This document shows, piece after piece, positions 7,613-38,364 of a stretch of 64,000 nucleotides of DNA. Where the stretch lies: NCBI GenBank assembly GCA_963728475.1, contig CAVSKL010000001.1, positions 186,001 to 250,000 on the forward strand, written 5' to 3'. The notes below the pieces were generated by a model. It was not told the origin of the DNA and searched no databases. It saw nothing but the letters and a program-made list of their open reading frames with translations. Made by a program: the position numbers and the translations under genes. Every line of letters starts with the position of its first letter. Within the stretch, counting starts at the first letter, position 1. The DNA is from CAVSKL01 sp963728475 [NCBI: Candidatus Eiseniibacteriota bacterium]. GTDB lineage: Bacteria; Eisenbacteria; RBG-16-71-46; JABDJR01.

Positions 7613-7614
7613 GC

Positions 7615-8139
7615 TCAAGTGGAGGCTTCTTCGCCGGCGGCGATCTTCTTCAGCCTCTTGGTCAGGAGACGGCGGCGGACGGGGCTCAGGCGATCCACGA
7701 ACAGGATCCCGTCGAGATGATCGATCTCGTGCTGGACGGCGCGGGCGAGAAGATCCTCGCACTCGAACTCGAAGGGCTCGCCCTTCAGGTTCAGCGCCTG
7801 GACCTGGACCCACTGGTGGCGGGCCACCTCCTCGCGGAGCCCGGGGATGGACAGGCACCCCTCGGTCCCCTTCTGGACGCCGTCGTGGGCCAGGATGACC
7901 GGGTTGATGATCGTTCCGCGGAAGCCGCTCCCCTCCTCCATGGGGACGTCGAGCACCGCGATCCGCCGGCCCACGCCGACCTGCGGTCCGGCGAGCCCCA
8001 CCCCCTCCTCCTCGTACATGACCTCGAACATGCGTTCGCTCAGGTCGGCGAGGTCGGGGGTGAACTCGGTGATCTCCTCCGCCCGGCGGCGGAGGACGTC
8101 GGCCCCGTAGATCTGAAGCGCGAGCTCGTTCAGGTTCAT
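7615..8139 (-). CDS. def: Peptide deformylase
   Basis: Removes the formyl group from the N-terminus of nascent proteins; 174 residues. All three signature motifs are present: GVGLAGPQVGVG (motif 1, with Gly in place of the more common Ala), EGCLSIPG with the metal-ligand Cys (motif 2) and QHEIDHLDGILF with the HExxH-type ligands (motif 3). The ATG shares one base with the yajC stop (TGATG). The basic C-terminal tail RRRLLTKRLKK is typical of ribosome-contacting deformylases. Confidence 0.97.
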   Translation of the reverse strand: MNLNELALQIYGADVLRRRAEEITEFTPDLADLSERMFEVMYEEEGVGLAGPQVGVGRRIAVLDVPMEEGSGFRGTIINPVILAHDGVQKGTEGCLSIPGLREEVARHQWVQVQALNLKGEPFEFECEDLLARAVQHEIDHLDGILFVDRLSPVRRRLLTKRLKKIAAGEEAST

Positions 8140-22099: not shown

Positions 22100-22126
22100 C
22101 TAACCCTTTACTCCTCCAAGGGTTAG
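22100..22126 (-). terminator. Possible hairpin at malG stop
   Basis: A 9-bp inverted repeat CTAACCCTT/AAGGGTTAG with a 9-base loop overlaps the malG stop codon. No T-run follows, so termination here is uncertain. Confidence 0.3.
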
Positions 22127-22939
22127 GCCACTCACCAGAAACCGGTTCAGGAGCAGGAATAGGATCACCACCGGGACCGAGACCAGGACGCTTCCCGCCG
22201 CATAGTTGGCCCACTCGGTCTGGAAGGTCCCGGCCAGCGCCTCCAGCCCCAGCGGGAGGGTGAAGAGATCGCGGCTCTGGAGCACCACCCGCGCCACGAT
22301 GAACTCGCTCCACGCCGCCATGAACGAGAAGAGCGCGGTGATGGTGAGCGCGGGAAGGGAAAGCGGGAGCACGATCCGCACGAACGCCCCCATGGGGGTG
22401 AGGCCGTCGATGAGGGCGGCCTCTTCCAGGTCGCGGGGGATCGAGTCGTAGTATCCCTTCATGGTCCAAACGCAGAAGGGAAGGGCGGTGGTCACGTAGA
22501 CCACCATGAGACCGGCCAGGCTGTTGAGGAGATGGAGCTTCTGCAGGAGGAGGTAGAGGGGCAGGAGCAACATGGTGGCCGGGAACATCTGGGTGAGGAG
22601 AAACGACATCAGGCCGATCCGGTGTCCGGGGAACCGGTACCGGCTGAAGGCGTAACCCGAGGTCGCGGCCAGCGCCACCCCGATCAGGGTCACGCTCAGC
22701 GAGACGATGAGGCTGTTCTTGAGCCAGAGCAGGAACGGCTTCTCGAATAGGATGGCATGGTAGGAGTGCAGGCTGGCCCCGGCCGGGATCAGCCGGAGCG
22801 ACGTCGAATAGAGTTGGTCCCCGGGGCGGAGCGAGATCCCGATCACCAGGAGGATCGGGTACAGGGTGACCAGGGTCACCGCGATGAGGGCGGCATGAGT
22901 AAGACCGCGTTGCCAGAGAGGAGTCTTTCCCGCGTTCAT
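22100..22939 (-). CDS. malG: Maltodextrin-type ABC transporter permease (MalG-like)
   Basis: Inner-membrane permease of the carbohydrate ABC uptake family CUT1; 279 residues with about six transmembrane helices. The cytoplasmic EAA loop, which contacts the ATPase, is EEAALIDGLTPMGAFVRIVLP. The N-terminal SLRPGDQLYSTSLRLIPAG is typical of MalG. The ATG shares a base with the malF stop (TGATG). It is the last gene of the glucan operon. No MalK ATPase lies nearby, so a shared MsiK-type ATPase encoded elsewhere is expected (inference). Confidence 0.92.
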   Translation of the reverse strand: MNAGKTPLWQRGLTHAALIAVTLVTLYPILLVIGISLRPGDQLYSTSLRLIPAGASLHSYHAILFEKPFLLWLKNSLIVSLSVTLIGVALAATSGYAFSRYRFPGHRIGLMSFLLTQMFPATMLLLPLYLLLQKLHLLNSLAGLMVVYVTTALPFCVWTMKGYYDSIPRDLEEAALIDGLTPMGAFVRIVLPLSLPALTITALFSFMAAWSEFIVARVVLQSRDLFTLPLGLEALAGTFQTEWANYAAGSVLVSVPVVILFLLLNRFLVSGLTLGGVKG

Positions 22940-23817
22940 CAGTATACCGACTCCGTTCCCCGTGATAGCCGCATGTAGAGCAGCACGAATACGAGCAGAA
23001 TGAGGAAGATCACCAGCGAGAACGCGGCCGCATAGCCGTAGCGGTAGAGGGTGAAGGCCGCCTTGTACACGTAGGTGACCAGGATGTGGCTCTTGTCCGC
23101 GGGCTTCCCCCCGTCGGTCACCAGCCAGATCACGTTCAGGTTGTTGAAGGTCCAGATCGTCCCCAGCACGATCGCCGGCACCAGCACCGGCTTCAGGAGC
23201 GGTAGGGTGACGTGGCGGAGCCGGTTCCACCAGTCGGCGCCGTCGATCGAGGCCACCTCGTAGAGCTCGTGGGGAATGGACTGGAGCCCGCCCAGGGCGA
23301 TCACCATCATGAAGGGGAAGCCGAGCCAGATGTTGGTGATGATGGCGGCGGCGAAGGCGGCGTGGGCATTGCTGAGCCAGGCCACCTGGGGAAGCCCGAA
23401 CTTGATCAGCCAGAGGTTCACCGCGCCGTACTCGTAGTTGAACATCCCCCGCCAGGTGAGGGCGGAGATGTACTGGGGCACCGCCCAGGGAATGATCAGG
23501 AGCGCCCGGTAGATCCACCGCCCTCGGAGGGGACGGTTCAGGACGACCGCCAGCCCCACCCCCAGGGTCACGTGGGCGGCCACGTTCACCCCGGTCCAGA
23601 TCACCGTCTTGAGCAGCACCACGTAGAGGGTGGGGGTGCTGAAGAGCTCGACGAAGTTCCCCAGCCCGATGAACTCGGGGTTCCGGAAGTGCCGGAGGCT
23701 CATGTTGGAGAAGGCGATCCGGAAGTTGTAGAGGAAGGGGTAGGCGACCACCGCCAGCATCACCAAGAGCGACGGCAGGACGAGGGCGTAGGCCAGGGGG
23801 ATGTTTCTCCGATTCAT
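22939..23817 (-). CDS. malF: Maltodextrin-type ABC transporter permease (MalF-like)
   Basis: CUT1-family permease of 292 residues with about six transmembrane helices. The N-terminus YALVLPSLLVMLAVVAYPF is typical. The EAA loop is YEVASIDGADWWNRLRHVTLP, and TDGGKPADKSHILVTYVYK matches the periplasmic loop of sugar permeases. It lacks the long extra periplasmic domain of E. coli MalF. It lies 54 bp after malE and overlaps malG. Confidence 0.93.
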   Translation of the reverse strand: MNRRNIPLAYALVLPSLLVMLAVVAYPFLYNFRIAFSNMSLRHFRNPEFIGLGNFVELFSTPTLYVVLLKTVIWTGVNVAAHVTLGVGLAVVLNRPLRGRWIYRALLIIPWAVPQYISALTWRGMFNYEYGAVNLWLIKFGLPQVAWLSNAHAAFAAAIITNIWLGFPFMMVIALGGLQSIPHELYEVASIDGADWWNRLRHVTLPLLKPVLVPAIVLGTIWTFNNLNVIWLVTDGGKPADKSHILVTYVYKAAFTLYRYGYAAAFSLVIFLILLVFVLLYMRLSRGTESVY

Positions 23818-23871
23818 CCTCTTCGGCCCCTTCCGCCTTCGGTCACCGTCGCCTCCGCCCCGGTCACCGGC

Positions 23872-25110
23872 CTACCGGTTCATGGCCTCGATCTTGTCCA
23901 GGGCGTCCTTCTGCATGTCCCGGGCCGCGTCCCCGGGGCTCTTGCTCCCGTTCATCACCGACTGCATGTTCGGGCGCATCGCGTCCCAGATCGCCCGCAT
24001 CTCCGGCACCACCGGCATCCGGCGCCCCACCTTCCACTGCTCCAGCGAGGCCTGGAGGATCGCGTCGTTCTTGATCTCGGGCAGGTCGTAGGCCTCTTTC
24101 ACGCTGGGGAGGATACCCAATTCGGTGGCGAAGCGGGCGGTGACCTTTTCCGAGGAGAGGTAGGCCAGGAGATCCTTCACCGTCGCTTCCTTGCTCTTGT
24201 CCAGGTTCACGTTCACCGAGTATCCCTTGGTCCCGATCATGGGGGCGGCCCAGGGGCCGCCGGGGGTGGCCCGGGGAATGCGGGCAAGGGCGAACGGCAC
24301 CCCCGCCTTGCCATAGTCGCCGAAGGACCAGGGGCCGTTGATGATCATGGCCGCCTTGCCGGTCTTGAACAGGGTGTCCATGAGCTGGTAGTTGCACTCG
24401 CGGGGCACCACCTTGTCCTTCTCCCGCAGGTCGCTCACGAAGGTGAGCGCCTTCACCATGGCCGGGGTGTCCAGGGTAGGACGGTTCTGGTCGTCCATCA
24501 CCCATCCGCCGTAGGCGGTGAGGAACGGCACCAGCCAGAACGGCTCGTTGAACTCGAAGGCAAGGCCGTAGCGGTCGGTGCGGCCGTCGGCCTGGGTGGT
24601 CATGGCGCCCTTGGCGATCTCCACCCACTGGTCGAAGGTCTGGGGCGGGGACTTCACCGCCTCGGTGTTGTAGAGCAGGTTGAGATGGTTTCCCACCTGG
24701 TCCGGGAGCGACCATACGTGGCCGTCCAGGGTATCGAGCGCGGCGGGGAGGAACCGGTTCCAGTCCTCTCCGGGCAGGAAGTCGTCCATGGGCTGGATGA
24801 TCTTCAGCACCGAGAACGGACCCACCTGGTCCGAGGGGCCGTAGACCAGGTCGGGCCCGCCGTTGGCCAGGGCCGCGGTCTGGTACTGGGTCCGGAGATT
24901 CTCGGTATCGTAGTGGACCAGGGAGACCTGCACGTTCGGGTGCGCGGCCTGGTAGTCCCGGAGCACCTCCTCCATGACCCCTTTCTCCTGGGGATCGCGC
25001 TGCTCCCAGATGGTGAGCTGGACCGCGCCGCTCGTGCTCCCCTTCCCCCCGCAGCCGGCCAGGAGCAGGCCCGCGAACCCCAGAATCCAACCGTTGCGCC
25101 CGATTCTCAT
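23872..25110 (-). CDS. malE: Maltodextrin-type ABC transporter substrate-binding lipoprotein (MalE-like)
   Basis: 412-residue extracytoplasmic sugar-binding protein. Its signal peptide ends in the lipobox LLLAGC (Cys20), so it is lipid-anchored rather than free as in E. coli. Family stretches include LTIWEQRDPQEKGVMEEVLR, DLVYGPSDQVGPFS, and KTGKAAMIINGPWSFGDYGK. The last of these is very like E. coli MalE and favours maltodextrin as substrate. The start at 25110 follows the preceding CBM48 lipoprotein by 14 bp; the longer frame upstream shadows that gene. Context with CBM48 and starch-binding lipoproteins supports alpha-glucan uptake. Confidence 0.93.
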   Translation of the reverse strand: MRIGRNGWILGFAGLLLAGCGGKGSTSGAVQLTIWEQRDPQEKGVMEEVLRDYQAAHPNVQVSLVHYDTENLRTQYQTAALANGGPDLVYGPSDQVGPFSVLKIIQPMDDFLPGEDWNRFLPAALDTLDGHVWSLPDQVGNHLNLLYNTEAVKSPPQTFDQWVEIAKGAMTTQADGRTDRYGLAFEFNEPFWLVPFLTAYGGWVMDDQNRPTLDTPAMVKALTFVSDLREKDKVVPRECNYQLMDTLFKTGKAAMIINGPWSFGDYGKAGVPFALARIPRATPGGPWAAPMIGTKGYSVNVNLDKSKEATVKDLLAYLSSEKVTARFATELGILPSVKEAYDLPEIKNDAILQASLEQWKVGRRMPVVPEMRAIWDAMRPNMQSVMNGSKSPGDAARDMQKDALDKIEAMNR

Positions 25111-25124
25111 GACCGCCGCCTCCC

Positions 25125-25616
25125 TTACTGGACCGTGACCACCGAGTTCTTGCCGCCGTACCCGTCGTCGGTGGTGTTGGGATTGGCGGGGTCGGCCTTC
25201 CACTCGGTGCCGTTGACCACGAACTTGTACTGGTAGGTCCCGGGGTCGAGCGGCTTGACCACGCTCCACACCCCGGTCGTCCCCTTGGTCAACGGGTCCG
25301 CCGAGGTGGACCAGTCGTTGAAGGTACCGGCCAGGGCCACCGCATTGGCCTGAGGCCCGAGATAGGTGAACCGCCAGCCCTGGTCGGTCCGGACCGGGGC
25401 CTCGGCCTGGGCCGCCGGCACCGAAGGTTGCGCCGGCGCCGCCGTCGCCGGAACCGTACCCTGGGTCGGCGACGGGGCCCCGGGCGGCACGTAGGGCCGG
25501 GTTCGGTCGCAGCCGGAGGCGGACAGGACGAGCAGGGCCGCCGCTCCCACCGCGATCCAGGCCGGGATCCGGGGGGCGCGCGTGGTTTGCGGCCGGGGCC
25601 GCCGGTGGTCTTTCAT
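25125..25616 (-). CDS. CBM48 (AMPK-type glycogen-binding) lipoprotein
   Basis: 163 residues: a signal peptide with lipobox LSASGC (Cys36), a Pro/Ala/Gln/Thr-rich linker (about 40-75), and a C-terminal CBM48/E-set domain (about 78-163). The domain shows VALAGTFNDWSTSADPL, YQYKFVVNGTEWKADP and NPNTTDDGYGGKNSVV. These match the glycogen-binding domain of AMPK beta and branching enzymes, including the Trp and Lys that stack on alpha-glucan. It is probably a surface or periplasmic glucan-capture protein that feeds MalE, encoded 14 bp downstream. Confidence 0.9.
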   Translation of the reverse strand: MKDHRRPRPQTTRAPRIPAWIAVGAAALLVLSASGCDRTRPYVPPGAPSPTQGTVPATAAPAQPSVPAAQAEAPVRTDQGWRFTYLGPQANAVALAGTFNDWSTSADPLTKGTTGVWSVVKPLDPGTYQYKFVVNGTEWKADPANPNTTDDGYGGKNSVVTVQ

Positions 25617-25704
25617 GGTGCTGACTCCTCTCCGCCGGGGCCTCGGAGCGGATCCGCTCCCGCCCGGCCGGTGCCCGAGGGGACCGCTTCCGGACCGTCG
25701 CCGG

Positions 25705-27708
25705 TCAAGGCGTCACCAGGGTCACGGTGAAGGTCTGGCGCCGCTCGTCGAGCGAGAACGCGTAGGCGCCGGGATTCGCGAACCGGATGTGGAGCGCGGT
25801 CCCCGTCCCCGATACCTGGCGCACCGGATAGCTCCCGGGCAGGTCCAGGGTCTGGCTTTCGTCCCCGCCGTAGTCCTTGGGGGTGTCGAAGGCGCCGTCG
25901 GTCACGAACTTCATGTTGAAGGTGCCGGCGGCGGCCACCGTCACCGTGTCCGTCCACACGCAGTTCGCCCCCTCGGTCATGGCCGGGGCCTGGCCCAGGT
26001 CGAACGAGGTGAAGTCCGCGGCGAGCTGGATGGTGGTGAAGCTCGAACTCCCCGCCGCGAGGCTCACCGTGCCTACGTCGGTCGGGGACCCGGAGACCGA
26101 CACGTTGGTGCGGGTCTCGGTGATGTAGCAGGGGGCCGACACTTCCAGGTCGTAGACGCCGTTGGCCAGCGCCTGGAACTTGAACGCCCGGGTCGAGGCG
26201 TCGGTGGTGGTCTGGGTGAGGGCGGTGTCCGAACCCGCCCGGAACAGCCGCACCACCGCCCGCGGGAAGGGCGCCGAAGCGATGCCGGAGAAGGCGGCGG
26301 TCCCGGTGATGGATCCGGTGGGCCCTCCCTGGAGCTCGGCGGTGAAGGTGAGGTCCTGTTCGTTCAGCGTGATCAGGTACTTGCCGGCGGTGGCCACCGA
26401 GATCCTGAGCGCGGTGCCGGTTCCGGAGACCTGTTTCACCGGATAGACCCCGGGCACGTTCAGGGTCTGGCCCTCGTCCCCGCCGTAGTCCTTGGGCGTG
26501 TCGAAGGCGCCGTTGGTCACGAATTTCATGTTGTAGGTGCCGGCGGCCAGGGTGAGGGTGTCCGTCCACACGCAGTTCGGCCCCTGCACCAGGAAGGGCG
26601 CCTGGGTCAGGTTGAAGGCGTTGAAGTCGCCGGCGAGCTGGATGGTGGTGAACTGGCTGCGGCAGCCGGGCTGCAGGGTGAGGGTTCCCACGTCCACGGT
26701 CTGGCCGTTCACGTAGGAGATGCCCACCACGGTGGTGTCCAGGTAGCCGTCGGCGGCGGCGGTCACGTCGTAGGTGCCGGAGTCGAGCCCGGTGAACGCG
26801 AACGCGCTGTCGGTCTGGGCGGTCTGGACCACCGCCCCCCCGCCGCTCCGCATGACCTGGACCGTGGCCAGGGGCCGGGGATCGGGGTGGTCGGCGAAGT
26901 CCACGGAGCCGCCGAGCCTTCCGGAGGCGGTGGTCATGGCGATGACCCCGAGATCCGCGGCGCGGTTGGGGAGCACCTCCACCGAGCCGATCCGCTTGGG
27001 CAGGTAGTCGGGGACCTCGATGCTCACGTCGTAGGTGCCCACCGGCAGGCCGGTGACCTGGAACTGCCCGGTCTGGGCGTCGCTCTCGATCTGGAGGTTC
27101 CCCTGGACCAGCCGGTAGGTGGCCGGACTCACCGCTTCGTTGACCTCAAAGGTCCAGTCCCCCGCGGAGGGAACGGTCAGGGACACGTTGCCGTCGGGCC
27201 CGTTGGCCGGGTTGTCGAGGGTCCCCTCCAGGGGGTCGGTTCCGGCGTTGGTGGCGGTCACCCCGTAGTCGCCGGGGTTGTCGAAGGCCAGCGTGGCGGG
27301 GCTGTATCCGGTCACGAACTTGAATTCCAAAAGGCCCTTGTCGAGATGGGTCTCGAACACCCACAGGCAGGGCAGCACCTCGGACATCGAATACTGCGCG
27401 GCCTGCGCGAGGTCGAAGTTGTTGAGCGTGCCCATCACCGCGATCGCCCCGTACGGGCTCACGCAGTCGGGATTCTCGTTCTGGAACGCGAGGATCCTGG
27501 CCACCGGGAAGGGCGGCTGGGCGTCGTTCTCGAAGGTGAGGGTGCCGACGATGTCCCCCCGGCCGCCGGGAGGGATCAGGACCGAGGTCTTGGGATTGTC
27601 GGAGCACCCCCCTCCCGCGAGCAGGGCCAGAAGGAGGATCGCCGTCCCCGCCGTCCACCGGCGCCGGCTCCCCGTGTGCGCCGGGAAACCCGGCCTTGTC
27701 CGCTTCAT
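25705..27708 (-). CDS. Multi-module SusE-like lipoprotein
   Basis: 667 residues with lipobox AGGGC (Cys35). Carboxypeptidase-regulatory-like beta domains (for example GTYDVSIEVPDYLPKRIGSV and GVYDLEVSAPCYITETRTNV) alternate with three copies of a starch-binding-like module. The last two copies are nearly identical in plan: TTIQLAGDFNAFNLTQAPF, CVWTDTLTLAAGTYNMKFVT, DTPKDYGGDEGQTL, then a short strand pair ending in TFTAEL or TFTVTL. The first copy (GTLNNFDLAQAAQYSMSEVL) is more diverged. The pattern resembles SusE/SusF of Bacteroides, but no SusC/D is present. An outer-surface glucan receptor is the best inference. It is in the operon, 88 bp before the CBM48 lipoprotein. Confidence 0.85.
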   Translation of the reverse strand: MKRTRPGFPAHTGSRRRWTAGTAILLLALLAGGGCSDNPKTSVLIPPGGRGDIVGTLTFENDAQPPFPVARILAFQNENPDCVSPYGAIAVMGTLNNFDLAQAAQYSMSEVLPCLWVFETHLDKGLLEFKFVTGYSPATLAFDNPGDYGVTATNAGTDPLEGTLDNPANGPDGNVSLTVPSAGDWTFEVNEAVSPATYRLVQGNLQIESDAQTGQFQVTGLPVGTYDVSIEVPDYLPKRIGSVEVLPNRAADLGVIAMTTASGRLGGSVDFADHPDPRPLATVQVMRSGGGAVVQTAQTDSAFAFTGLDSGTYDVTAAADGYLDTTVVGISYVNGQTVDVGTLTLQPGCRSQFTTIQLAGDFNAFNLTQAPFLVQGPNCVWTDTLTLAAGTYNMKFVTNGAFDTPKDYGGDEGQTLNVPGVYPVKQVSGTGTALRISVATAGKYLITLNEQDLTFTAELQGGPTGSITGTAAFSGIASAPFPRAVVRLFRAGSDTALTQTTTDASTRAFKFQALANGVYDLEVSAPCYITETRTNVSVSGSPTDVGTVSLAAGSSSFTTIQLAADFTSFDLGQAPAMTEGANCVWTDTVTVAAAGTFNMKFVTDGAFDTPKDYGGDESQTLDLPGSYPVRQVSGTGTALHIRFANPGAYAFSLDERRQTFTVTLVTP

Positions 27709-27775
27709 GCCTCTTCCCCCTCCCGGCCCCGGAATTCGGGGCCGGTGAGCGCCCGGCGGGCGTTCGGGCCCGCCG

Positions 27776-28176
27776 TCAGTCCACGATCAGGAGTGAGTTG
27801 AATCCCCCGTAGCCGTCGTCCACGCGCTGGGGATTGTTGGGATCTTCCTTCCAGTTCTGCTCGTCGATGACGAACTTGTACTGGTACCGCCCCGGCGGCA
27901 GGACCTCCCTCCGCTCCCAGATGCCGTCCCCGTCCTTGTCCTCCATCTTGCCGACCAGGTAGCTTCCGGTCTGCGCCTGGCCCGCCAGCCAGTTGTTGGC
28001 CGGCCAGTTCCCCGCGACCTGGACCACCCGGGCCGACGGCGCCTGGAACCGGAACAGGATGCTGCCGTCCGCTTCCCGGGTGGGGGGGGAAGCCGCTTCT
28101 TGATGAAGTTCATGCCGCATCCGGAAAGTCCCACCGCCGTGGTGAGGATGAGGACCCCCAGAATCATACGACGCAT
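27776..28176 (-). pseudogene. CBM48 lipoprotein broken by a C8-tract frameshift
   Basis: The signal peptide (MRRMILGVLILTTAVGLSGC, lipobox Cys20) lies in one frame from the ATG at 28176. The CBM48 domain (VVQVAGNWPANNWLAG, YQYKFVIDEQNWKEDPNNP, DDGYGGFNSLLIV) lies in another frame that ends at 27776. The switch falls at a run of eight C on the coding strand (28089-28082). Nine C, or six, would restore one frame of about 130 residues. The domain is otherwise intact and closely resembles its sister lipoprotein 25125-25616. It may be a recent mutation, a phase-variable gene, or a sequencing error. It is the fifth gene of the glucan operon. Confidence 0.8.
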
Positions 28177-28193
28177 TTCGGGTCACCTCGCGA

Positions 28194-30386
28194 TCAGAAC
28201 GTGATGATGGCTTCGAGCTGGATCCGCTTCTCGTCCTCCAGCTGCTGTTCCGCGCGGCGAACGGTGTCGGTCATGTCCAGGAACCGGGTCTTCGCCGCGT
28301 CTCCGGTGGCCCCCTGCTGGAACAGGAACAGATCCCGGCCGATGTGGGCGTACTGGTTGCTGAGGGGATCGATCACCCAGGGGTCCACCCCCCAGGACAG
28401 GCCCACGTTCATGTCGGGCGTGAACTTGTATTTTAGCTCCACGAAGTGGGAGGTGAAGGTGTCCTTCAGGTTCAATACCGGGTCGTCGTACCGGGCGATC
28501 CGCGAGTCGGTGTTGAGCCCCAGCCGGGAATTCAGGTCCACGTGCAGCGCGATCTGGTTTCCCCAGTACTTGGGCTTGCGGTCGGGCCGGGTGGTGTTGA
28601 GAACCCCCCGGTACTCGACCGAGGCGTGGCGAGGGGCATAGAACATCCATCGGAAGTGGGGCCGCCAGGTGGCCACGTTGTTCCCGCCCAGCAACACCAG
28701 CCGGTCCACCGAGACCAGGTGCTCCCCGTTCTCCAGCCAGAAGTTGCGGTCGTCGAACCAGAACTGGTCCGTCCACCGGGCCGAAGCGGCGTAGTTGAAG
28801 TCGAAGTACTCGAACTCCAGGCCCGCCTCCCACGGCCAGCGCTTCCACTCGTCCCCGCTGAAGCGAACCCCCGTCCGGTAAACCGTCATCCGGTTGTAGC
28901 GGCGGGCCGGGGGACCGTTCCGGTCGGTGATGTCCTCGTCCTGGAACTCCACCGATCCCGTCCAGTGCCAGCCGCGATAGGCGAAGTACTCGCCCCCCAG
29001 CTTGAACCGCTTGCTGGAGTTGAGTTCGGGACTCTCGGGGGAGGCCGCGGACAGCCTTTCCTGGCTGCGGTCCGCGGTTCCCGCCGCGGTATCGATGTTG
29101 GTGTAGGTGACCCGGAGGAGGTCGCCGGTCCCGGTGCTGATCCACTTCTTGCCGGCCAGGAACTCCCCGTAGAGATCGATCCCCTGGGGATCGCTGTGGT
29201 AGCGGAGATCCCCTCCCCCGCCTTGCCAGCTTTCCACCGTCCCCGGGAAGGAGCGCAGAGTGAGCACCCGGGTGCCGGGGTCGGGCGTGCTCTGATCGAT
29301 CACCTCGCCCAGGGCTCCGGGGTCCAGGCCCCGGTCCAGGCGGTAGGAGAGCCCGGCGGTGAGGTTCCCCCGCACCGGGCCGGTGACGCGCGCGGCGAGG
29401 ACGTTCTTGTTGTTCTCGGAGCGATTGAACGCGTACTGGAACGAGCCGGGGAGCGGATCGTCGGGATGCGCGACGAGCTGGCCCGCCAGCGCGTCCAGAA
29501 ATGGGTCGATGGCGGGGCTGGTCTGGCCGCCGGACTGAAAGTTGTCCGAGTACAGGAGCCGCCCTTCGTAGTTCCCGAACTTCCTCCAGGCGGTGGCCCC
29601 CTGCTGGTTGAACCCCCAGGGGTGGTGGTAGATCCCGATGTCCCCCACGATGTGGAGGGGATCGTTCCAGGTTCCCACCGAATCGTTGTCGAAGGCGAGG
29701 AGGTTGATGTCCGCGTTCTGGAGCAGCAGGCTCCCACGATCGAAGGTGAGGTTCGTCTCCCAGAGCTGGACGTTCTGGTTGGCGTTGTTGATGTTGGTGA
29801 GGACGTGGGCGGTCAGGTCCTCGTTGACCCGGATGTCGAAGTCGAGGTCGATGTCGTAGTTGGGGCGGTCCAGGTTCCACTGGGGATTGCTCCCCTCCAC
29901 CTTCCGGTCCTGCATGAGGACCACGTAGCGGGAGCCCAGGAAGATCTTGGGGGAGAGTTCGGTGTTGGAGGTGGCCTTCATCGCCACCACCTTCCCGTCC
30001 GGCCCCACCGTCACCACCGAGTTGCCGAAGTCGCCGCCGGTCACCGGATTGGTGGGGTCCGCGGTCCACTGTCCGTCCACCACGAACTTGTACTGGTGCT
30101 CGCCCGGAGGCAGGCTCACGGTGGCGGTCCAGATTCCGTCGTCGTTCTTCACCATGGGATTGGCACCCGCGCTCCACGCGTTGAAGTCTCCGGCCAGGAA
30201 CACGTTGCCCGCATAGGGGTCCTTGTGGGTGAACAGCACGCCGCCCCCCGGGGCATTGTCCACCGCCGACCACGCCGGGCGCGGACCGGGCGCGGCCACT
30301 GCCGCCAGCAGGAGAAGGACCAGCGCCGCCCTCCCTCCCCGGGACCGGATCGCCTTTCCCGGCCAGTACTTTTCCATGGTTCGCAT
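28194..30386 (-). CDS. CBM48 domain fused to predicted outer-membrane beta-barrel
   Basis: 730 residues. Signal peptide about 1-40 (ending RPAWSA). A CBM48 domain (about 48-130) shows VFLAGDFNAWSAGANPMVKN and HQYKFVVDGQWTADPTNP. The rest is long and rich in aromatic residues and alternating polar/apolar strands of beta-barrel type (for example WPWEAGLEFEYFDFNYAAS, KYWGNQIALHVDLNSRLGL). It ends with the aromatic terminus EAIITF, usual for outer-membrane proteins. The start at 30386 overlaps the upstream stop (TGATG); a second ATG lies three codons later. I infer a porin or receptor that carries its own glucan-binding domain. I do not recognise the barrel family. Confidence 0.85.
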   Translation of the reverse strand: MRTMEKYWPGKAIRSRGGRAALVLLLLAAVAAPGPRPAWSAVDNAPGGGVLFTHKDPYAGNVFLAGDFNAWSAGANPMVKNDDGIWTATVSLPPGEHQYKFVVDGQWTADPTNPVTGGDFGNSVVTVGPDGKVVAMKATSNTELSPKIFLGSRYVVLMQDRKVEGSNPQWNLDRPNYDIDLDFDIRVNEDLTAHVLTNINNANQNVQLWETNLTFDRGSLLLQNADINLLAFDNDSVGTWNDPLHIVGDIGIYHHPWGFNQQGATAWRKFGNYEGRLLYSDNFQSGGQTSPAIDPFLDALAGQLVAHPDDPLPGSFQYAFNRSENNKNVLAARVTGPVRGNLTAGLSYRLDRGLDPGALGEVIDQSTPDPGTRVLTLRSFPGTVESWQGGGGDLRYHSDPQGIDLYGEFLAGKKWISTGTGDLLRVTYTNIDTAAGTADRSQERLSAASPESPELNSSKRFKLGGEYFAYRGWHWTGSVEFQDEDITDRNGPPARRYNRMTVYRTGVRFSGDEWKRWPWEAGLEFEYFDFNYAASARWTDQFWFDDRNFWLENGEHLVSVDRLVLLGGNNVATWRPHFRWMFYAPRHASVEYRGVLNTTRPDRKPKYWGNQIALHVDLNSRLGLNTDSRIARYDDPVLNLKDTFTSHFVELKYKFTPDMNVGLSWGVDPWVIDPLSNQYAHIGRDLFLFQQGATGDAAKTRFLDMTDTVRRAEQQLEDEKRIQLEAIITF

Positions 30387-31969
30387 CAGAAGGTCCCCTT
30401 CACGATGAGCCGGACCAGGTCCTTGTTGTCGGCGCTCCCCTGCAGGTTCCCCTCGAACACCGGGTTGCTCCCGGCGCCGATCCAGAACGGGCCGTAGGAC
30501 AGGAACATCTCCAGGTTCGGACGGGGCCGGTACTGGAGCTCGCTGAACAGCCCCTTGCGGACCTGCGCGGGGTCGTTGCCGAAGGTGAATCGGTTGTAGA
30601 TCTTCACCGTCGAGGACACGTTCACCGAGGTCTCGAACGAGGCCAATTCCTTCTGGAACACGGTGTCGAGGTCCCGGATACGGAACTGGAGCCGGAGCCA
30701 GGCCAGCTTGTCCTCGACCTGCATTTCCGCGAACACGTCGTCGTTGTGGCTGATCTGCTCGATGGTGGTCTGTCCGTCGGAGAACCAGTCGCGGGTGGTG
30801 TGCTTGTGGTAGAAGAGTTTTCCGGTGAACCCGTTCACGAACTCGACGTAGGCCTCGGAGTAGAAGTCGGTGATGTGCTGGCTCTGGTTCACCCGCTTCA
30901 CGTACGACGTGTAGTTGTTGGTGAGGGTGACGGCGCGCCCCGGCACCAGGTACCAGGTGTTGATGAAGTAGCCGGATTCGTCGTTGTTGCCGTCGCCGAG
31001 CTGGTTCCGGTACTGCGGCCCCAGCACCCAGAAGCTGGGAGCGAGGTTCAGGTAGCCGGTCCGGTAGTTCCCCAGCCGGATCGACCGGATCTCCCCCCGC
31101 ACCACCCCGTGGTTGGACACAGAGCGGTAGGGCCAGGCGGAGGAGGACGCCTCGGTGGCGGCGCTGTCGGCCGCGGTGGCCCCGAGATCGTGCTGGTAGC
31201 CCTCGGCGTACTCCAGGGAGAAGTCGGTGCCGTGCCACGAGTAGCGGGTGTCGAATCCCAGGACCTGGGTGATGAACCGCTGGTCGTTTCCGGGGCGGCT
31301 CTTGGAGTCCTTCCGGTTCCAGGTGATCCCGGTCCGGAGCGCTCCGCCGAAGAACTCCCGGCGGAGGCGACCGACGTAGGCGTCGTCGGTCGGGGTCGCG
31401 GTGGGGGGCTGGTAGCCGGTGTCGGTGCTGCCCGAGGGGCCGGTGGCCCCGGTGGTGGGGTTGCTCTGCGAGGAGAAGTCGCTGGCGATGAGGGTCAGGT
31501 TGGTGGGGCCGCCCCCCCACAGATCCACCCGCGCCCCCTGCGCGTTGCCTCCGTCGTTGGCGGGGCCGCCCTGCACCACCTGGATGAGGTGGTTGTCCAC
31601 CCAGAAGCGGTCCTGGCGGCTGAACAGGTAGGAGTCGATCCCCTTGTCCCCGAATTCCTTGCGGAAGCGGAGGTGGGCCTCGCGATACTGGAACAGCGGA
31701 CGCCGGTTGCTGTTGTTGCCGGTGTTCCAGTCCGCCTCGAACCGGGTGAACGCCTCCACCCCTTGCACCGGCTGGCTGAACAGCCGGAACTGGACGTCGT
31801 TGAAGGTGTCGTCGCTGTTGCTGTCGAAATCCCACAGATAGCGCCGGTCCTGCTTGCGGACGTCCACCATGAAATCGTATTCGCCCTCCAGCCGGGTGAA
31901 GGCGGCGGCCGGCAACGCCGCCCCCAGGGCGGTTACGACCAGGGCGAGGACGAGCGGCCAGCGCTTCAT
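30386..31969 (-). CDS. Predicted outer-membrane beta-barrel protein
   Basis: 527 residues. Signal peptide about 1-23 (ending PAAA), then a long series of amphipathic strands beginning FTRLEGEYDFMVDVRKQDRR and ending with a C-terminal Phe (RLIVKGTF). Many Trp/Tyr/Arg residues and periodic charged turns fit a large barrel, resembling alginate-export or DUF1302-type porins in style. I cannot assign a family. It sits between a PorV-like gene and the CBM48-barrel gene, with overlaps at both ends, so the three products are made together. A glucan-specific outer-membrane channel is the likely role (inference). Confidence 0.82.
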   Translation of the reverse strand: MKRWPLVLALVVTALGAALPAAAFTRLEGEYDFMVDVRKQDRRYLWDFDSNSDDTFNDVQFRLFSQPVQGVEAFTRFEADWNTGNNSNRRPLFQYREAHLRFRKEFGDKGIDSYLFSRQDRFWVDNHLIQVVQGGPANDGGNAQGARVDLWGGGPTNLTLIASDFSSQSNPTTGATGPSGSTDTGYQPPTATPTDDAYVGRLRREFFGGALRTGITWNRKDSKSRPGNDQRFITQVLGFDTRYSWHGTDFSLEYAEGYQHDLGATAADSAATEASSSAWPYRSVSNHGVVRGEIRSIRLGNYRTGYLNLAPSFWVLGPQYRNQLGDGNNDESGYFINTWYLVPGRAVTLTNNYTSYVKRVNQSQHITDFYSEAYVEFVNGFTGKLFYHKHTTRDWFSDGQTTIEQISHNDDVFAEMQVEDKLAWLRLQFRIRDLDTVFQKELASFETSVNVSSTVKIYNRFTFGNDPAQVRKGLFSELQYRPRPNLEMFLSYGPFWIGAGSNPVFEGNLQGSADNKDLVRLIVKGTF

Positions 31970-32868
31970 CGTCCCTTCTCCCGGGACAGGGTGTACTGGA
32001 ACGAGGCCCGGTAGGTGTTTCCCAGGTCCTTGTGGGTGAGGAAGGCGGTATCGACCTCCCAGCGCCCCCCCTTGATCCCGAACCCGCCCGAGAATTCCTC
32101 GTCGAACACCCCGGCCCGCACCGCGAACACGTTGTAGAACCAGATCTCCCCCGCGTAGTCGTATGTGGGGTGGTCTCCCACGTCGGAGCGGCTGAACATG
32201 ATCGTGGATTCGGGGCGCCAGCGGTAGGAGGCGGAGAGTTCCAGGCCTCCCGGCATCCGGGTGCCCCCACCGGAGCCCACGAAGTTGAACTCGGGGCGGC
32301 CCAGGTGCCGGAGCACCGCGCCCATCCGCACCCGTCCGCGCTCCTGCCATAGGAGGCCCAGATCGCCGGTAACCTTGCTCTTGGACCCGAAGTCCCGGAT
32401 CCCGGCCCCGGGGTCGAACGCCACCGAGGCGAAGAGCGCGGTCCCCCCCACCGCGATCGTGCGGTCGTCGTCCCGGTAAACCCAGCGGCCGTAGGAGAGG
32501 CCGATCAGATTCTCGGAGATCACGTTGTCGACCCCGGTCCGGTTCCAGCTCAAGGCGGCCCCGCCCGAGGCCAGGGGCATTCCCGCCACCACCGATCCGG
32601 CCGAGAGGCCGTTCACCACGTAAGGCCGCGAGTAGGTGAAGAGCCCCTGCGGATCCGGCAGGAGCGACAGGGCCCCGGGATTCCAGTAGGCGGCGGAGAC
32701 GTCGTCCACCATCGAGCCGTAGGCGCCGGCCAGGGCCAGGCCCCGGGCCCCGATCTCCACCCGTTCGAAGTAAGCGGACGCGGGTCCGGCGGACAGGGCC
32801 GGCCACGCCCCCACCGCCACCACCGCCGCGATCCGGATCAAGTTCGTTCGGGCCCCCCGGGTGATCAT
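31966..32868 (-). CDS. PorV/PorQ-like outer-membrane barrel protein
   Basis: 300 residues. Signal peptide about 1-32 (ending PASA). The start of the mature protein, ARGLALAGAYGSMVDDVSAA, followed by YWNPGALSLL, is the characteristic N-terminus of FadL-fold PorV/PorQ/UPF0164 proteins. PorV is the shuttle that helps T9SS cargo reach the surface. A member inside an operon with a FlgD-tailed secreted protein therefore suggests a dedicated surface-display partner (inference). The ATGA overlap with the next barrel gene implies coupling. Confidence 0.85.
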   Translation of the reverse strand: MITRGARTNLIRIAAVVAVGAWPALSAGPASAYFERVEIGARGLALAGAYGSMVDDVSAAYWNPGALSLLPDPQGLFTYSRPYVVNGLSAGSVVAGMPLASGGAALSWNRTGVDNVISENLIGLSYGRWVYRDDDRTIAVGGTALFASVAFDPGAGIRDFGSKSKVTGDLGLLWQERGRVRMGAVLRHLGRPEFNFVGSGGGTRMPGGLELSASYRWRPESTIMFSRSDVGDHPTYDYAGEIWFYNVFAVRAGVFDEEFSGGFGIKGGRWEVDTAFLTHKDLGNTYRASFQYTLSREKGR

Positions 32869-32902
32869 GATCCGCTCCGCCCCGGTCCCCGAGGCCCCGC
32901 TC

Positions 32903-34243
32903 TCATCGCGCCACCGCGAACGCCCGCCGGACCTGGTCCTGGCCGGGCTCGAGGATCACCTGGAGCACGTAGATCCCCCCCGCGAGCATCCGTCCCGAGT
33001 CGTCCTTGCCGTCGATCAGGTTCCGGACCGGAGGCTCGGTCTGGTCGAGCTCGTCCAGGGTGAAGGGCTCGTTCTCGTAGATGGTGCGCACCCGTTTCCC
33101 GGTCACGTCGAAGATCCGCGCCGAGAAGTTCACCCGCCTCGATTCCCGGAGCCGCGGGTCGTCGATGTGCGGGGTCACGGTGAACCGGAAGTGCGCCTGG
33201 TCGCCGAGCTCCGGGGCCACCGCCTTCGGATCCAGGGTCATGTCGCTCAGCTGGAGCGCCTGTCCGCGGATGGGCGGCGGCACGAAGAAGAACTTGCGCA
33301 CGTAGGTCTCGTACCCGGCCCGGGTCTGCTCGGAGCTGGGGATCCGCACCGGCACGCCGAAGTCGGGGAAGCCGTCGGGAACGGCATTTCCGGAGGCGTC
33401 CACGCTGTCCACCACGATCCGGATGAAGTTGTCGAGAACCACCGGCACCGCGGAGTCCACCTGGTGTCCGCTCAAGTTGTCGGGGGCGGAGTCCGGCCCC
33501 CCCAGCCCGTCGGATCCGGTGGTGATCCACGCCGCCAGCTTGAAGTCGTGGACCCCCTCGGGGAGCTGGTAGACGGTGTCGCCGTAGGCGGCGTTGAACA
33601 CCCGCTTCCCCTTTCCCAGGAAGAACGTGTCCCAGGGGATGGCCGCCTCCATCGCCCGGTTGGGCAGATCCCGGCTGAAGGTGGCCACGGTGGGGAAGGT
33701 CCCCTGGGCAACCTGGGCGTCGTTGTTGGGGCCGGTGTACTGCCAGAGCTGGGGGGTGGTGTTCCCATCCCAGGTGGAGAGGAAGAGATCGGGGGCGAGA
33801 CCGTTGTCGAACGAGACCGCGCGCCGCCATCCCCCCACGATCGAGGACATGTCGCTCCAGCCCGGCGCCTGCCCGTCCGGGGAGGGCAGGGTATCGAAGA
33901 AGATCATGACGTTGTTGTCGAAGATGTATCCCTCGACCGCCACGTAGACGAAGTTGGCGTCCCAGGTCACGCGGATGTTGTTGAGGTCGTCGAAGCGTCC
34001 CCACCGCGAATCGATGGTGCTCTCCTCGGGCCCGCCCAGTTCCCCGATCGAGGTGACCACGCGCTGGAACAGGGTCTCGTCGGGGAGGTAATCGGAGGTG
34101 AAGCCGTCCACCTGGATGCGCCCGGACAGGTCGATCGCGGTCCCGGCGAGGAGCCGGGAGGAGGGGATGAACAGGGCGGCGAGCACGGCGAAGGCCGCGA
34201 CGGCGAGGGTTCGAAACCGGGGGAGAGGGGCGGTTGGATTCAA
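32903..34243 (-). CDS. Secreted protein with C-terminal FlgD-Ig-type domain, operon leader
   Basis: 446 residues from a TTG at 34243; no better start is visible. Signal peptide about 1-33 (ending SSRLLA). The N-terminal half looks like a CBM9/DOMON-type beta domain (FTSDYLPDETLFQRVVTSIG, NNIRVTWDANFVYVAVEGYI). The C-terminal 130 or so residues resemble a FlgD-like Ig domain (NFSARIFDVTGKRVRTIYEN, DGKDDSGRMLAGGIYVLQVI). It lacks the PNPF motif and final tail of the 816-aa protein, so it may be displayed differently. It is the first gene of the ten-gene glucan operon, directly behind a LacI-controlled promoter. Confidence 0.85.
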   Translation of the reverse strand: MNPTAPLPRFRTLAVAAFAVLAALFIPSSRLLAGTAIDLSGRIQVDGFTSDYLPDETLFQRVVTSIGELGGPEESTIDSRWGRFDDLNNIRVTWDANFVYVAVEGYIFDNNVMIFFDTLPSPDGQAPGWSDMSSIVGGWRRAVSFDNGLAPDLFLSTWDGNTTPQLWQYTGPNNDAQVAQGTFPTVATFSRDLPNRAMEAAIPWDTFFLGKGKRVFNAAYGDTVYQLPEGVHDFKLAAWITTGSDGLGGPDSAPDNLSGHQVDSAVPVVLDNFIRIVVDSVDASGNAVPDGFPDFGVPVRIPSSEQTRAGYETYVRKFFFVPPPIRGQALQLSDMTLDPKAVAPELGDQAHFRFTVTPHIDDPRLRESRRVNFSARIFDVTGKRVRTIYENEPFTLDELDQTEPPVRNLIDGKDDSGRMLAGGIYVLQVILEPGQDQVRRAFAVAR

Positions 34244-34425: not shown

Positions 34426-35460
34426 CTACCGTCGGGGGGGCGGTCCGCTCGATTCCCGCAGCACCAGCTGGGTGGGCATGACCTCGGTCCGGGCGGGCAA
34501 GTCCTTGTTTTCCAACCCCTCCAGGAGCATGCGGGTGGCCCGGATCCCGATCTCGTAGATCGGCTGCGAGATCGTGGTCAGCCGCGGCCGGACGTAGGTG
34601 GTGAGGCGGATGTCGTCGGCCCCGACCACGGTGAGGTCCCCGGGAACTTCAAGCCCGAGTTCCTCCTGGGCGACCCGCATCGCACCGATGGCCATGGTGT
34701 CGTTCGCCACCACCAGGGCGGTGGGCCTCGGGCGGAGGGCAAGGAGTTCACGGGCGGCGGCGGCGCCGCTCTCCTCGGAGAAATTGCCCCACAGGCGCGG
34801 CACCGCATCGATGGAGATCCCGGCCTCGCGGAGGGCGTCGGCCATGCCGCGGCTTCGCTCCTCCCCCACCGTGGTGTTCTCCAGCCCGCCGATGAGGGCG
34901 AGGCGCCGGTGGCCCAGTCCAAGCACGTGGCGCACCATGTCGCGCGCCCCGGTCCGGTTGTCGGCGACCACCGCCGCCGCGCCCTCCCGCATGGAGTTCA
35001 CCAGCACCAGCGGGGCGTGCATGTCGACGAGTTCCTGCACGAACGCGTCCTCGGCGATGGTGCCGAGAAGCAGCATGCCGTCCACCCCCCCCTTGCGGAT
35101 GAGGCGGGTGTGGGTCCGGTCCTTGAGGAACCGGTCGTCGGCGATCTCGATGAGGAGCCGGAACCCGGCCTCGCTGAGGCCGCTCGAGATACCGCTGATC
35201 GCCTCCGCGAAGTAGAAGTCGGCGAAGACGTGGGAATCGGTCTTGGGGAGCACCACCACCACCGCGTCCGCGCGCCGCCGGGCCAGCCCCCGGGCCATGG
35301 TGTTGGGTTCGTAGCCCGCCTTGTCGATGACCTTGAGCACCCGGGCCTTGGTCTCGGCGGAGATGCGCGGATCGTCGTTGATGACCAGGGAAACGGTGGA
35401 CCGCGAGACCCCGGCGAGCTTGGCGATGTCGCGAATGGTGGGTTTGGCCGCGTGCTCCAC
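34426..35460 (-). CDS. LacI-family transcriptional regulator of the glucan locus
   Basis: 344 residues. The N-terminal LacI helix-turn-helix TIRDIAKLAGVSRSTVSLVI is followed by the hinge YEPNTMARGLARRRA. The periplasmic-binding-protein-like effector domain includes LALIGGLENTTVGEERSRGM and DLTVVGADDIRLTTYVRPRL. The GTG at 35460 has AAAGGA six bases upstream; the long upstream frame extension is not protein-like. It probably represses the locus and releases it on binding a maltodextrin or similar sugar (inference from family and context). An operator lies in its own promoter, so autoregulation is likely. It is transcribed in the same direction as the operon, about 180 bp ahead of it. Confidence 0.94.
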   Translation of the reverse strand: MEHAAKPTIRDIAKLAGVSRSTVSLVINDDPRISAETKARVLKVIDKAGYEPNTMARGLARRRADAVVVVLPKTDSHVFADFYFAEAISGISSGLSEAGFRLLIEIADDRFLKDRTHTRLIRKGGVDGMLLLGTIAEDAFVQELVDMHAPLVLVNSMREGAAAVVADNRTGARDMVRHVLGLGHRRLALIGGLENTTVGEERSRGMADALREAGISIDAVPRLWGNFSEESGAAAARELLALRPRPTALVVANDTMAIGAMRVAQEELGLEVPGDLTVVGADDIRLTTYVRPRLTTISQPIYEIGIRATRMLLEGLENKDLPARTEVMPTQLVLRESSGPPPRR

Positions 35461-38302: not shown

Positions 38303-38364
38303 CACCTTTACCTCCTTGCTCATCCCTGCGGCCCTACCTCTCTGTGCCGCTTCATCAAGAGTGC

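What the first reader, a model, noticed from the sequence alone, without database searches (positions are those of the whole stretch)
22100..34243. SUS-like alpha-glucan uptake operon without SusC/SusD
About ten consecutive same-strand genes with tiny gaps or overlaps combine a FlgD-Ig-type secreted protein, a PorV-like barrel, two large barrels, three glucan-binding lipoproteins and MalEFG. It looks like a complete surface-to-cytoplasm glucan capture route, built from parts other than the TonB-dependent SusCD pair or LamB. No TonB box, amylase or ATPase is present. This is the best candidate in the window for an undescribed system.
Basis: partly seen in the sequence, partly recalled or inferred. 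Interest (0 to 1): 0.78.

Follow-up and report, generated by a model that had tools for sequence, protein, structure and literature searches.

The report
Unusual bacterial starch-uptake gene cluster
A run of genes in an uncultured Eisenbacteria-type bacterium seems to build an outer-membrane machine that captures and takes in starch-like sugar chains without the proteins (SusC and SusD) used by well-studied starch eaters, and its core genes keep the same order in several other little-known bacterial phyla.

Summary
In detail: ten same-strand genes (34243 to 22100), gaps of -4 to 88 bases, encode a FlgD-tailed secreted protein, a PorV-family barrel, two large barrels, three lipoproteins with CBM48 or X25-like domains, and MalEFG. 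The core (FlgD-tailed protein, PorV, BarB, BarA, CBM48 lipoprotein) is complete in 50 of 63 fetched loci; 12 of the other 13 are cut by contig ends. They come from Eisenbacteria, Krumholzibacteriota and Cloacimonadota records. In the Eisenbacteria phylum, BarB and window-type MalG occur in the same 17 of 47 genomes. Neither barrel matches a Pfam family; both model as plugless barrels of about 24 strands. SusD was found in 0 of 19 BarB genomes, the type IX translocon SprA in 18 of 19. The CBM48 lipoprotein carries a conserved peptide behind its lipidated Cys in 52 of 57 loci. Best reading: a type IX/PorV-based alpha-glucan capture and import complex that works like Sus but is built from other parts. 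Transport is inferred, not shown; many loci lack adjacent MalEFG. The papers searched do not describe it.

The parts
34426..35460 (-). LacI-family regulator upstream, same strand, 182 bases before the first gene; possible regulator
   Evidence: Pfam LacI and Peripla_BP_3; gap. Link to the operon is inference only
32903..34243 (-). FlgD446: secreted protein, predicted carbohydrate-binding domain (relative of the c6 proteins, one of which was scanned and has Glucodextran_C) plus FlgD/T9SS-type C-terminal tail
   Evidence: FlgD_ig in 10 of 10 aligned members, Por_Secre_tail in 4, CHU_C in 3 (the window member alone is weak, 0.01); FlgD446 profile matches c6 and c7 proteins; Glucodextran_C in the c6 protein of L024
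31966..32868 (-). PorV-family outer-membrane barrel
   Evidence: NCBIfam PorV_fam 2.8e-12, 46.9 bits, below its cut-off of 90; profile A6 matches PorV of 6h3i at 9.1e-11
30386..31969 (-). BarB: 527 aa, plugless barrel of about 24 strands, no known family
   Evidence: AlphaFold2 model pLDDT 75.5, pTM 0.67; VIA Z 18.7 to PapC usher 7lhh_C, 380 aligned, 3.9 A; no credible Pfam family in 19 members; C-terminal aromatic in 62 of 63 rows
28194..30386 (-). BarA: 730 aa, N-terminal CBM48 (about residues 49-124) then a large plugless barrel (about 142-730)
   Evidence: Pfam AMPK1_CBM 9.5e-15; phmmer to AMPK-beta 3.4e-14; model pLDDT 67.3, pTM 0.57; VIA Z 16.2 to the Fiu barrel, 383 aligned, 4.7 A; CBM residues conserved
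27776..28176 (-). CBM48 lipoprotein with the conserved peptide behind the lipid Cys; reading frame broken in this assembly at a C8 run
   Evidence: Frames; AMPK1_CBM 26.6 bits, cut-off 26.8; motif in relatives
25705..27708 (-). CPDlp: lipoprotein with CarboxypepD_reg domains and X25/CBM48-like stretches
   Evidence: Pfam CarboxypepD_reg 2e-17, X25_BaPul_like 8.6e-6 at 26.2 bits, cut-off 27; lipobox by eye
25125..25616 (-). Second CBM48 lipoprotein
   Evidence: AMPK1_CBM 51 bits (cut-off 26.8), CBM_48 45.6 bits (cut-off 22.4); lipobox by eye
23872..25110 (-). MalE-type binding lipoprotein
   Evidence: SBP_bac_8 2.6e-36; PDB 6ffl at 5.2e-99; lipobox by eye
22939..23817 (-). MalF permease
   Evidence: BPD_transp_1; NCBIfam MalF 1.7e-50, below the equivalog cut-off
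22100..22939 (-). MalG permease
   Evidence: BPD_transp_1; NCBIfam MalG 1.5e-55, below the equivalog cut-off; 79% identical to L001
21182..21949 (-). Secreted protein with two X25 starch-binding-type domains; probably belongs to the cluster
   Evidence: X25_BaPul_like 5.6e-28, two stretches; relatives lie next to MalG or the core in several loci
18278..20728 (-). 816 aa secreted protein with T9SS type A sorting tail; probably belongs to the cluster
   Evidence: TIGR04183 42.5 bits, cut-off 23; relatives lie near the core or MalEFG in many loci

Best explanation
The genes encode an outer-membrane alpha-glucan (starch, glycogen or maltodextrin) capture and import complex that plays the part of Sus but is built from type IX secretion parts and two new plugless barrels. 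Proposed path: (1) FlgD446 is exported by the type IX system through its C-terminal tail and held at the surface by its own PorV-family barrel, where it binds glucan [inferred from tail, partner gene and SprA in relatives]. (2) Glucan chains cross the outer membrane through the wide barrels BarB and/or BarA [inferred]. (3) The CBM48 at the N-terminus of BarA, which should face the periplasm, and the CBM48 lipoprotein, docked by its conserved peptide, catch the chain on the inner side and keep it from slipping back [CBM48 and motif shown; location and action inferred]. (4) MalE takes the maltodextrins to MalFG, powered by a MalK encoded elsewhere [families shown; MalK not seen in the window]. 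In relatives, GH13 and GH57 enzymes, several with CBM48, would trim the chains.
For: Core order complete in 50 of 63 loci, 12 of the other 13 cut by contig ends. With distance limits, PorV lies within 400 bases upstream of BarB in 60 of 63 loci and BarA within 1,300 downstream in 59 of 63. GH13, GH57 or GDE_C profile hits in 39 of 64 fetched loci and MalE, MalF or MalG in 29. Phyletic coupling: BarB and window-type MalG in the same 17 of 47 Eisenbacteria-phylum genomes (Fisher 3.6e-13, not corrected for kinship); of 117 Cloacimonadota genomes, 11 of 13 with BarB carry a MalG hit over 440 bits against 1 of 104 without. CBM48 residues in BarA: W71 in 61 of 61 aligned rows, K100 60 of 61, W107 60 of 61, N122 59 of 60. 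Both barrel families end in an aromatic residue, BarA 59 of 59 and BarB 62 of 63 rows, and model as barrels. SprA_N in 18 of 19 BarB genomes, SusD in 0 of 19. Peptide behind the lipid Cys in 52 of 57 loci, 51 by pattern and L122 by eye; the same pattern is in 57 of 7,054 six-frame open stretches of the fetched loci and window region.
Against: There are no transport, binding or expression data. MalEFG lies with the core in only 29 of 64 fetched stretches, and in many Krumholzibacteriota loci it is divergent. In Cloacimonadota two BarB genomes lack the high-scoring MalG and one genome with it lacks BarB. Four divergent loci in stretches of 16 to 20 kb (L156, L157, L159, L160) have the core or most of it with no glucan enzyme or MalEFG recognised. 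The one BarB genome without SprA_N is G001, the nearest relative of the window, though that MAG may be incomplete. The best structural match of BarB is a pilus usher, an exporter. A plugless 24-strand pore must be gated somehow, and no energy source is apparent. The BarA model is of middling confidence (pLDDT 67.3). The motif pattern was written after looking at the sequences.
Confidence: 0.6

Rival explanations
1. Surface adhesion or display complex. PorV, BarB, BarA and the FlgD-tailed protein assemble a surface structure that holds cells and amylases on starch or glycogen, like an amylosome; uptake of the released sugars runs through other porins.
For: FlgD-tailed GH13 enzymes lie beside MalEFG or on the same stretch as the core (L002, L017). 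BarB resembles ushers. The module is often not adjacent to MalEFG. A cellulosome-like starch and chitin complex has been proposed in Ca. Stygibacter (PMC8542988, section 7); L038, titled Ca. Stygibacter frigidus, holds MalF, MalG, FlgD446, PorV and BarB.
Against: Adhesion does not need two wide barrels, nor a CBM48 on what should be the periplasmic end of one of them. Presence tracks one MalG type closely. BarA follows BarB in all 60 loci of 63 that are not cut before it.
Confidence: 0.2
2. Exporter of an alpha-glucan or of a glucan-bearing protein: the barrels work outward, like AlgE or an usher, and the CBM48 domains guide a nascent chain.
For: Nearest folds of BarB include the usher PapC/FimD and the alginate exporter AlgE. 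A starch synthase lies near MalEFG in some loci, e.g. L006, though not beside the core there.
Against: Coupling to a binding-protein-dependent importer (MalEFG) and nearness to hydrolytic GH13, GH57 and GDE_C enzymes speak for uptake. Wide barrels resemble each other whatever the direction.
Confidence: 0.08
3. Ordinary maltodextrin operon with two general porins that happen to lie beside it.
For: Maltoporin and OccK/OprD porins appear among tied fold matches of BarA.
Against: The same two barrel families lie next to each other, to PorV and to the CBM48 lipoprotein across phyla. BarB gives one match in each genome that has it (second matches are short pieces). One barrel carries its own CBM48.
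Confidence: 0.07
4. A diverged SusCD system.
For: Role, CBM-bearing lipoproteins and large barrels resemble Sus; a SusCD-type entry (5t3r, BT1762-1763) appears at Z 14.4 among barrel matches of BarB.
Against: No plug, TonB-receptor or SusD family in any BarA or BarB member by Pfam; SusD in 0 of 19 BarB genomes; the BarB barrel begins at residue 24 with no plug-sized domain before it.
Confidence: 0.02

Closest known systems
Bacteroides Sus system (SusCDEFG)
   Same: Same apparent job: surface glucan binding, outer-membrane passage and CBM-bearing lipoproteins for alpha-glucan
   Different: No plug barrel of the SusC type recognised and no SusD; surface binder is FlgD-tailed with a PorV partner; inner-membrane step is MalEFG. 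Sus components recalled; SusD absence tested
Enterobacterial maltose system (LamB plus MalEFGK)
   Same: MalE, MalF and MalG families; outer-membrane barrels encoded with a binding-protein-dependent importer
   Different: Two barrels of about 24 strands with no LamB family match; CBM48 on one barrel and on lipoproteins; no linked MalK in the window
Type IX secretion PorV/PorQ and CTD cargo
   Same: PorV300 belongs with the PorV family by profile; FlgD446 tail matches FlgD_ig and, in some members, T9SS sorting tails; SprA_N in 18 of 19 BarB genomes
   Different: PorV300 falls far under the PorV equivalog cut-off; here PorV and its tailed partner are kept with two barrels and CBM48 proteins
Chaperone-usher pore (PapC/FimD) and AlgE
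   Same: Best fold neighbours of BarB; wide pore
   Different: No usher family match in Pfam; no chaperone or pilin family among the cluster genes scanned; context is glucan
Ca. Stygibacter starch/chitin multienzyme complex (Cloacimonadota, PMC8542988)
   Same: Cloacimonadota, starch, surface complex with a C-terminal attachment domain; the paper lists a maltooligosaccharide transport system
   Different: That proposal rests on cohesin and dockerin; the section read does not mention a PorV-BarB-BarA module

Membership tests
SusCD-type polysaccharide utilisation system | SusD/RagB lipoprotein | tested here: not met
   PF07980 in 0 of 19 BarB genomes; control Bacteroides ihuae rings
SusCD-type polysaccharide utilisation system | TonB-dependent barrel with plug domain | tested here: not met
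   No plug or TonB-receptor Pfam family in 19 BarB or 12 BarA; BarB strands start at residue 24
LamB maltoporin | Sequence match to the maltoporin family | tested here: not met
   No porin family hit at E up to 1
LamB maltoporin | 18-strand barrel fold | tested here: inconclusive
   Maltoporin 1mpr at Z 14.9 covers BarA 148-614 only, 269 aligned, tied with many barrels; models show about 24 strands
PorV/PorQ family | Profile similarity to PorV | tested here: met
   A6 to 6h3i PorV 9.1e-11; NF033709 2.8e-12 but 46.9 bits against a cut-off of 90
T9SS PorV equivalog | Score above the NCBIfam cut-off | tested here: not met
   NF033710 12.7 bits against 250
T9SS cargo (FlgD446) | FlgD or T9SS C-terminal tail | tested here: met
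   FlgD_ig in 10 of 10 members at E up to 0.1, best 1.5e-6; the window member alone is weak, 0.01 and below the cut-off
T9SS cargo (FlgD446) | Type IX translocon in the genome | tested here: inconclusive
   SprA_N over cut-off in 18 of 19 BarB genomes; missing in G001, the window's nearest relative; 0 of 14 named control genomes ring. The window's own genome is not held
T9SS cargo (FlgD446) | Secretion depends on T9SS | not testable with these tools
   Needs an experiment
CBM48 (BarA N-terminus) | Family score and glucan-contact residues | tested here: met
   55 bits against 26.8; W, K, W, N conserved in 61 of 61, 60 of 61, 60 of 61 and 59 of 60 rows; W, K, W align with AMPK-beta, N lies beyond that alignment; the role of these residues in AMPK-beta is recalled
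MalEFG importer | SBP and permease domains in one gene run | tested here: met
   SBP_bac_8 and BPD_transp_1 over cut-off; equivalog cut-offs for E. coli-type MalE, MalF, MalG not reached
MalEFG importer | Cognate ATPase MalK | tested here: inconclusive
   None in the window genes scanned in frame; MalK profile over 250 bits in 8 of 64 fetched loci
Usher family | Usher Pfam domains | tested here: not met
   No usher family hit in 19 BarB members

The most novel reading that the evidence does not exclude
A TonB-independent outer-membrane glucan importer of a kind not described before. A PorV-anchored, type IX-exported receptor hands glucan to a pair of plugless barrels of about 24 strands, and CBM48 domains fixed at the periplasmic mouth, one fused to BarA and one on a lipoprotein docked by its conserved peptide, act as a ratchet that pulls the chain in by binding alone. 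It would stand in for SusCD across several phyla (Eisenbacteria, Krumholzibacteriota, Cloacimonadota and at least one more).
Probability: 0.35. Interest if true: 0.88.

Novelty: new variant of a known kind. Interest (0 to 1): 0.72.

Why it matters
How large glycans might cross the outer membrane without TonB is an open question, and how Eisenbacteria, Krumholzibacteriota and Cloacimonadota take up polysaccharide without SusCD has no answer in the papers I searched. This gives a defined set of five to ten genes, two barrel families without a Pfam entry, and a short docking-like motif, each of which can be tested. It also suggests a second job for PorV-family barrels beyond protein secretion.

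Tried and rejected
Scanning genome contigs with the BarA protein found no relative, probably because exact 8-residue patterns are too strict for this family; MalG worked (best 80 of 264 relatives kept). Searches scanned BarA one base out of frame and so missed its CBM48; corrected. In one search five window genes (491-7720) were scanned on the wrong strand, and a few were off frame or strand; most were rescanned and are a sigma-54 activator, LMF1, rpe, PASTA, RsmB, Fmt, an SNF symporter, purA and serA. A few window genes were not scanned in frame at all (e.g. 9764-10822, 13681-14289, 60656-64000).

PDB sequence searches with BarB gave nothing credible. BarA and BarB may be distant paralogues: hhalign gives 83% over 163 columns at the start of the barrels, too weak to claim. 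Fold neighbours of BarA are tied between siderophore receptors, ushers, OccK porins and maltoporin, and those of BarB run from ushers to AlgE and others, so I name no fold family. The models' coordinates are not readable here, so I could not see whether the BarA CBM48 sits inside or below the barrel.

BarB was not found in 198 genomes of the phylum of an Ignavibacteriae MAG, in 24 of 49 further MalG genomes, or in 5 of 24 handle genomes. One search has no positive control inside it, though the same query rings in other phyla.

Rows dropped: of 35 Krumholzibacteriota genomes with BarB, 31 were fetched; G194, G209, G211 and G230, with partial matches or contig ends, were left out. G010 and G039 were not refetched because L020 and L025 already cover them. 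L112 (G037) holds BarA at a contig end; no BarB or window-type MalG was found in that genome. The tree used 63 rows; one row under 380 aa was dropped, and L159 and L160 sit on very long branches. 'Consecutive' means next to each other among genes that my profiles recognise; unrecognised genes may lie between. With distance limits, L120 (PorV), L122 and L136 (lipoprotein) and L158 (upstream gene) fail although the genes are listed. My first statement of the lipoprotein motif was too narrow (it fits 5 of 57); the form given now fits 51 of 57 plus L122 by eye, and the L159 hit is not counted.

Papers: searches. Seen: listings and starts of abstracts; passages of PMC11495043, PMC11285876, PMC8542988 and PMC6851124; section 7 of PMC8542988. 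None of what I saw describes this module. The role of the AMPK-beta residues, the function of PorV and the parts of Sus are partly recalled.


Full report
What is there. The window carries, on the minus strand from 34243 down to 22100, ten genes in one run: FlgD446, PorV300, BarB, BarA, a CBM48 lipoprotein, CPDlp, a second CBM48 lipoprotein, MalE, MalF and MalG. Gaps run from -4 to 88 bases, and BarB and BarA overlap in TGATG. A LacI-type gene lies 182 bases upstream. Two further same-strand genes lie downstream: a protein with two X25 domains, and an 816-residue protein with a T9SS type A tail. The window's own genome is not held. The nearest BarB, 66% identical, is in G001, the genome of L001, whose record is titled Candidatus Eisenbacteria.

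BarA begins with a CBM48 that is closest among solved structures to the glycogen-binding domain of AMPK-beta (3.4e-14). The W, K and W that line up with AMPK-beta there, and an N just beyond, are kept in 61 of 61, 60 of 61, 60 of 61 and 59 of 60 aligned BarA rows. That these residues touch glucan in AMPK is recalled. Because the CBM48 follows the signal peptide and the barrel ends with a C-terminal phenylalanine, it should lie on the periplasmic side; this is inference.

Conservation. A scan with MalG gave 80 loci, and mapping the window's proteins on them showed much of the cluster in Eisenbacteria, Krumholzibacteriota and Cloacimonadota records. BarB was then sought in whole genomes; the phyla are named here after record titles. 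It was found in 17 of 47 in the phylum of L019 (Eisenbacteria), 13 of 117 in that of L043 (Cloacimonadota) and 35 of 80 in that of L052 (Krumholzibacteriota, two of them weak). It was also found in 2 of 5 in the phylum of L015, and in 0 of 198 in that of L074 (Ignavibacteriae). Four more BarB genomes (G002, G003, G004, G011) are not among the 47 of the Eisenbacteria phylum. I fetched 64 neighbourhoods, of which 63 hold BarB. In 50 of 63 the five-gene core, FlgD446 or its longer counterpart c6, then PorV, BarB, BarA and a CBM48 lipoprotein, is consecutive on one strand among the genes my profiles recognise. Of the other 13, twelve are cut by contig ends and one (L159) is a very divergent relative. 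In most Krumholzibacteriota loci the c6 protein of about 2,000 residues takes the place of FlgD446. Its L024 member has a Glucodextran_C domain, and FlgD446 and c6 proteins share domain and tail by profile.

Link to alpha-glucan. Profile hits of any score to GH13, GH57 (over 300 bits) or GDE_C lie in 39 of 64 fetched stretches and to MalE, MalF or MalG in 29; 49 have at least one of these and 15 have none, ten of the 15 being under 12 kb. In a Cloacimonadota locus (L043) the core runs on into a GH13 enzyme with four CBM48 stretches. Across the 47 genomes of the Eisenbacteria phylum, window-type MalG (E up to 1e-60) occurs in exactly the 17 genomes that have BarB. In the 117 Cloacimonadota genomes, 12 have a MalG hit over 440 bits and 13 have BarB; 11 have both. 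G091 has only the MalG type, and G079 and G099 have only BarB; ten more have a lower-scoring MalG (about 345 bits) and no BarB. Fisher values are 3.6e-13 and 1.1e-12, but related genomes are not independent. I did not run this test in Krumholzibacteriota.

The barrels. No Pfam family matches BarB in 19 members at E up to 1 except chance-level ones, and BarA matches in substance only through its CBM48. BarB models well enough to read (pLDDT 75.5, pTM 0.67) as a barrel of about 24 strands that begins at residue 24, with no plug domain. Its best structural neighbour is the PapC usher pore, Z 18.7, 380 aligned, 3.9 A, with AlgE, OccK and a SusCD-type entry further down. BarA models less well (pLDDT 67.3, pTM 0.57). 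Its residues 142-730 match siderophore-receptor barrels, OccK porins, ushers and maltoporin at tied scores. Shared barrel folds do not show function.

Type IX parts. PorV300 is a PorV-family protein by profile (9.1e-11 to 6h3i PorV) but far below the equivalog cut-off. The FlgD446 family has an FlgD-type tail in 10 of 10 members, weakly in the window's own. SprA_N is found in 18 of 19 BarB genomes; the one without it is G001, the window's nearest relative. SusD is found in 0 of 19. Passages read in PMC11285876 say that T9SS may be present in FCB phyla including Cloacimonadota, and place PorV in the attachment complex.

A conserved peptide. Directly behind the lipidated cysteine of the CBM48 lipoprotein that follows BarA lies C-x(3,5)-[FILVA]-[ILV]-[KRE]-x-R-[LIVM]-x-x-P, for instance CSMNFIKKRLSPP in Cloacimonadota (L118), CSTLTFIKRRLPPP in Eisenbacteria (L115) and CSYSRILRNRLPTP in Krumholzibacteriota (L140). 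It is in 51 of 57 loci by pattern and in L122 by eye; L128, L156, L157, L159 and L160 lack it. Of 7,054 six-frame open stretches in the fetched loci and window region, 57 hold the pattern. The pattern was written after looking at the sequences. The other lipoproteins of the window cluster lack it by eye, so it is unlikely to be a general sorting signal. I propose that it docks the lipoprotein on BarA or BarB. In the window this gene is split between two frames at a run of eight C; I cannot tell a sequencing slip from a real change.

How it probably works. See Best explanation. Shown here: gene order, families, conservation, coupling to MalG in two phyla, SusD not found and SprA found in relatives. 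Inferred: export of FlgD446, its hold on PorV, passage of glucan through BarB or BarA, periplasmic site of the CBM48 domains, docking by the peptide, hand-over to MalE. The main rival is a surface adhesion complex; an exporter is possible but less likely; unrelated porins and a diverged SusCD are disfavoured.

Novelty. The job is known (Sus, maltose system), but the parts and their arrangement are not described in what I saw of the papers searched. The nearest report, on Ca. Stygibacter, proposes a cohesin-dockerin complex for starch and chitin and lists a maltooligosaccharide transporter; the section I read does not mention the barrels. The library holds only open-licence papers, so absence from print is not shown. 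A tree of BarB mostly follows the sets fetched per phylum, with a few exceptions (6 changes against a least possible of 4), so the module looks old.

Noticed in passing
28083-28090: Run of eight C where the CBM48 lipoprotein changes frame; lipid signal in one frame, CBM48 in the next.
   Followed up: partly
L097-L160, lipoprotein after BarA: Conserved peptide behind the lipid cysteine, C-x(3,5)-[FILVA]-[ILV]-[KRE]-x-R-[LIVM]-x-x-P, in 52 of 57 loci across phyla.
   Followed up: partly
38398-53535: Giant 5,045-residue minus-strand gene with Ig-like domains and an FlgD tail, next to a PorV-OmpA fusion at 36665-38323; an open frame of 5,049 codons lies on the other strand over nearly the same stretch (probably a high-GC shadow).
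   Followed up: partly
60656-64000: Three paralogous minus-strand genes (low ends at 60656, 62063 and 63384) that cluster together; no member in the 80 loci.
   Followed up: no
2233-3768: Homologue of lipase maturation factor LMF1, a family that I recall mainly from animals.
   Followed up: no
23872-25110: MalE is far closer to PDB 6ffl (5.2e-99) than to E. coli-type MalE chains; 6ffl is recalled to be from Bdellovibrio.
   Followed up: no
L110, L104 (G012, G034): Two Eisenbacteria-phylum genomes carry BarB inside the Krumholzibacteriota branch of the tree, which suggests transfer of the module between phyla.
   Followed up: partly
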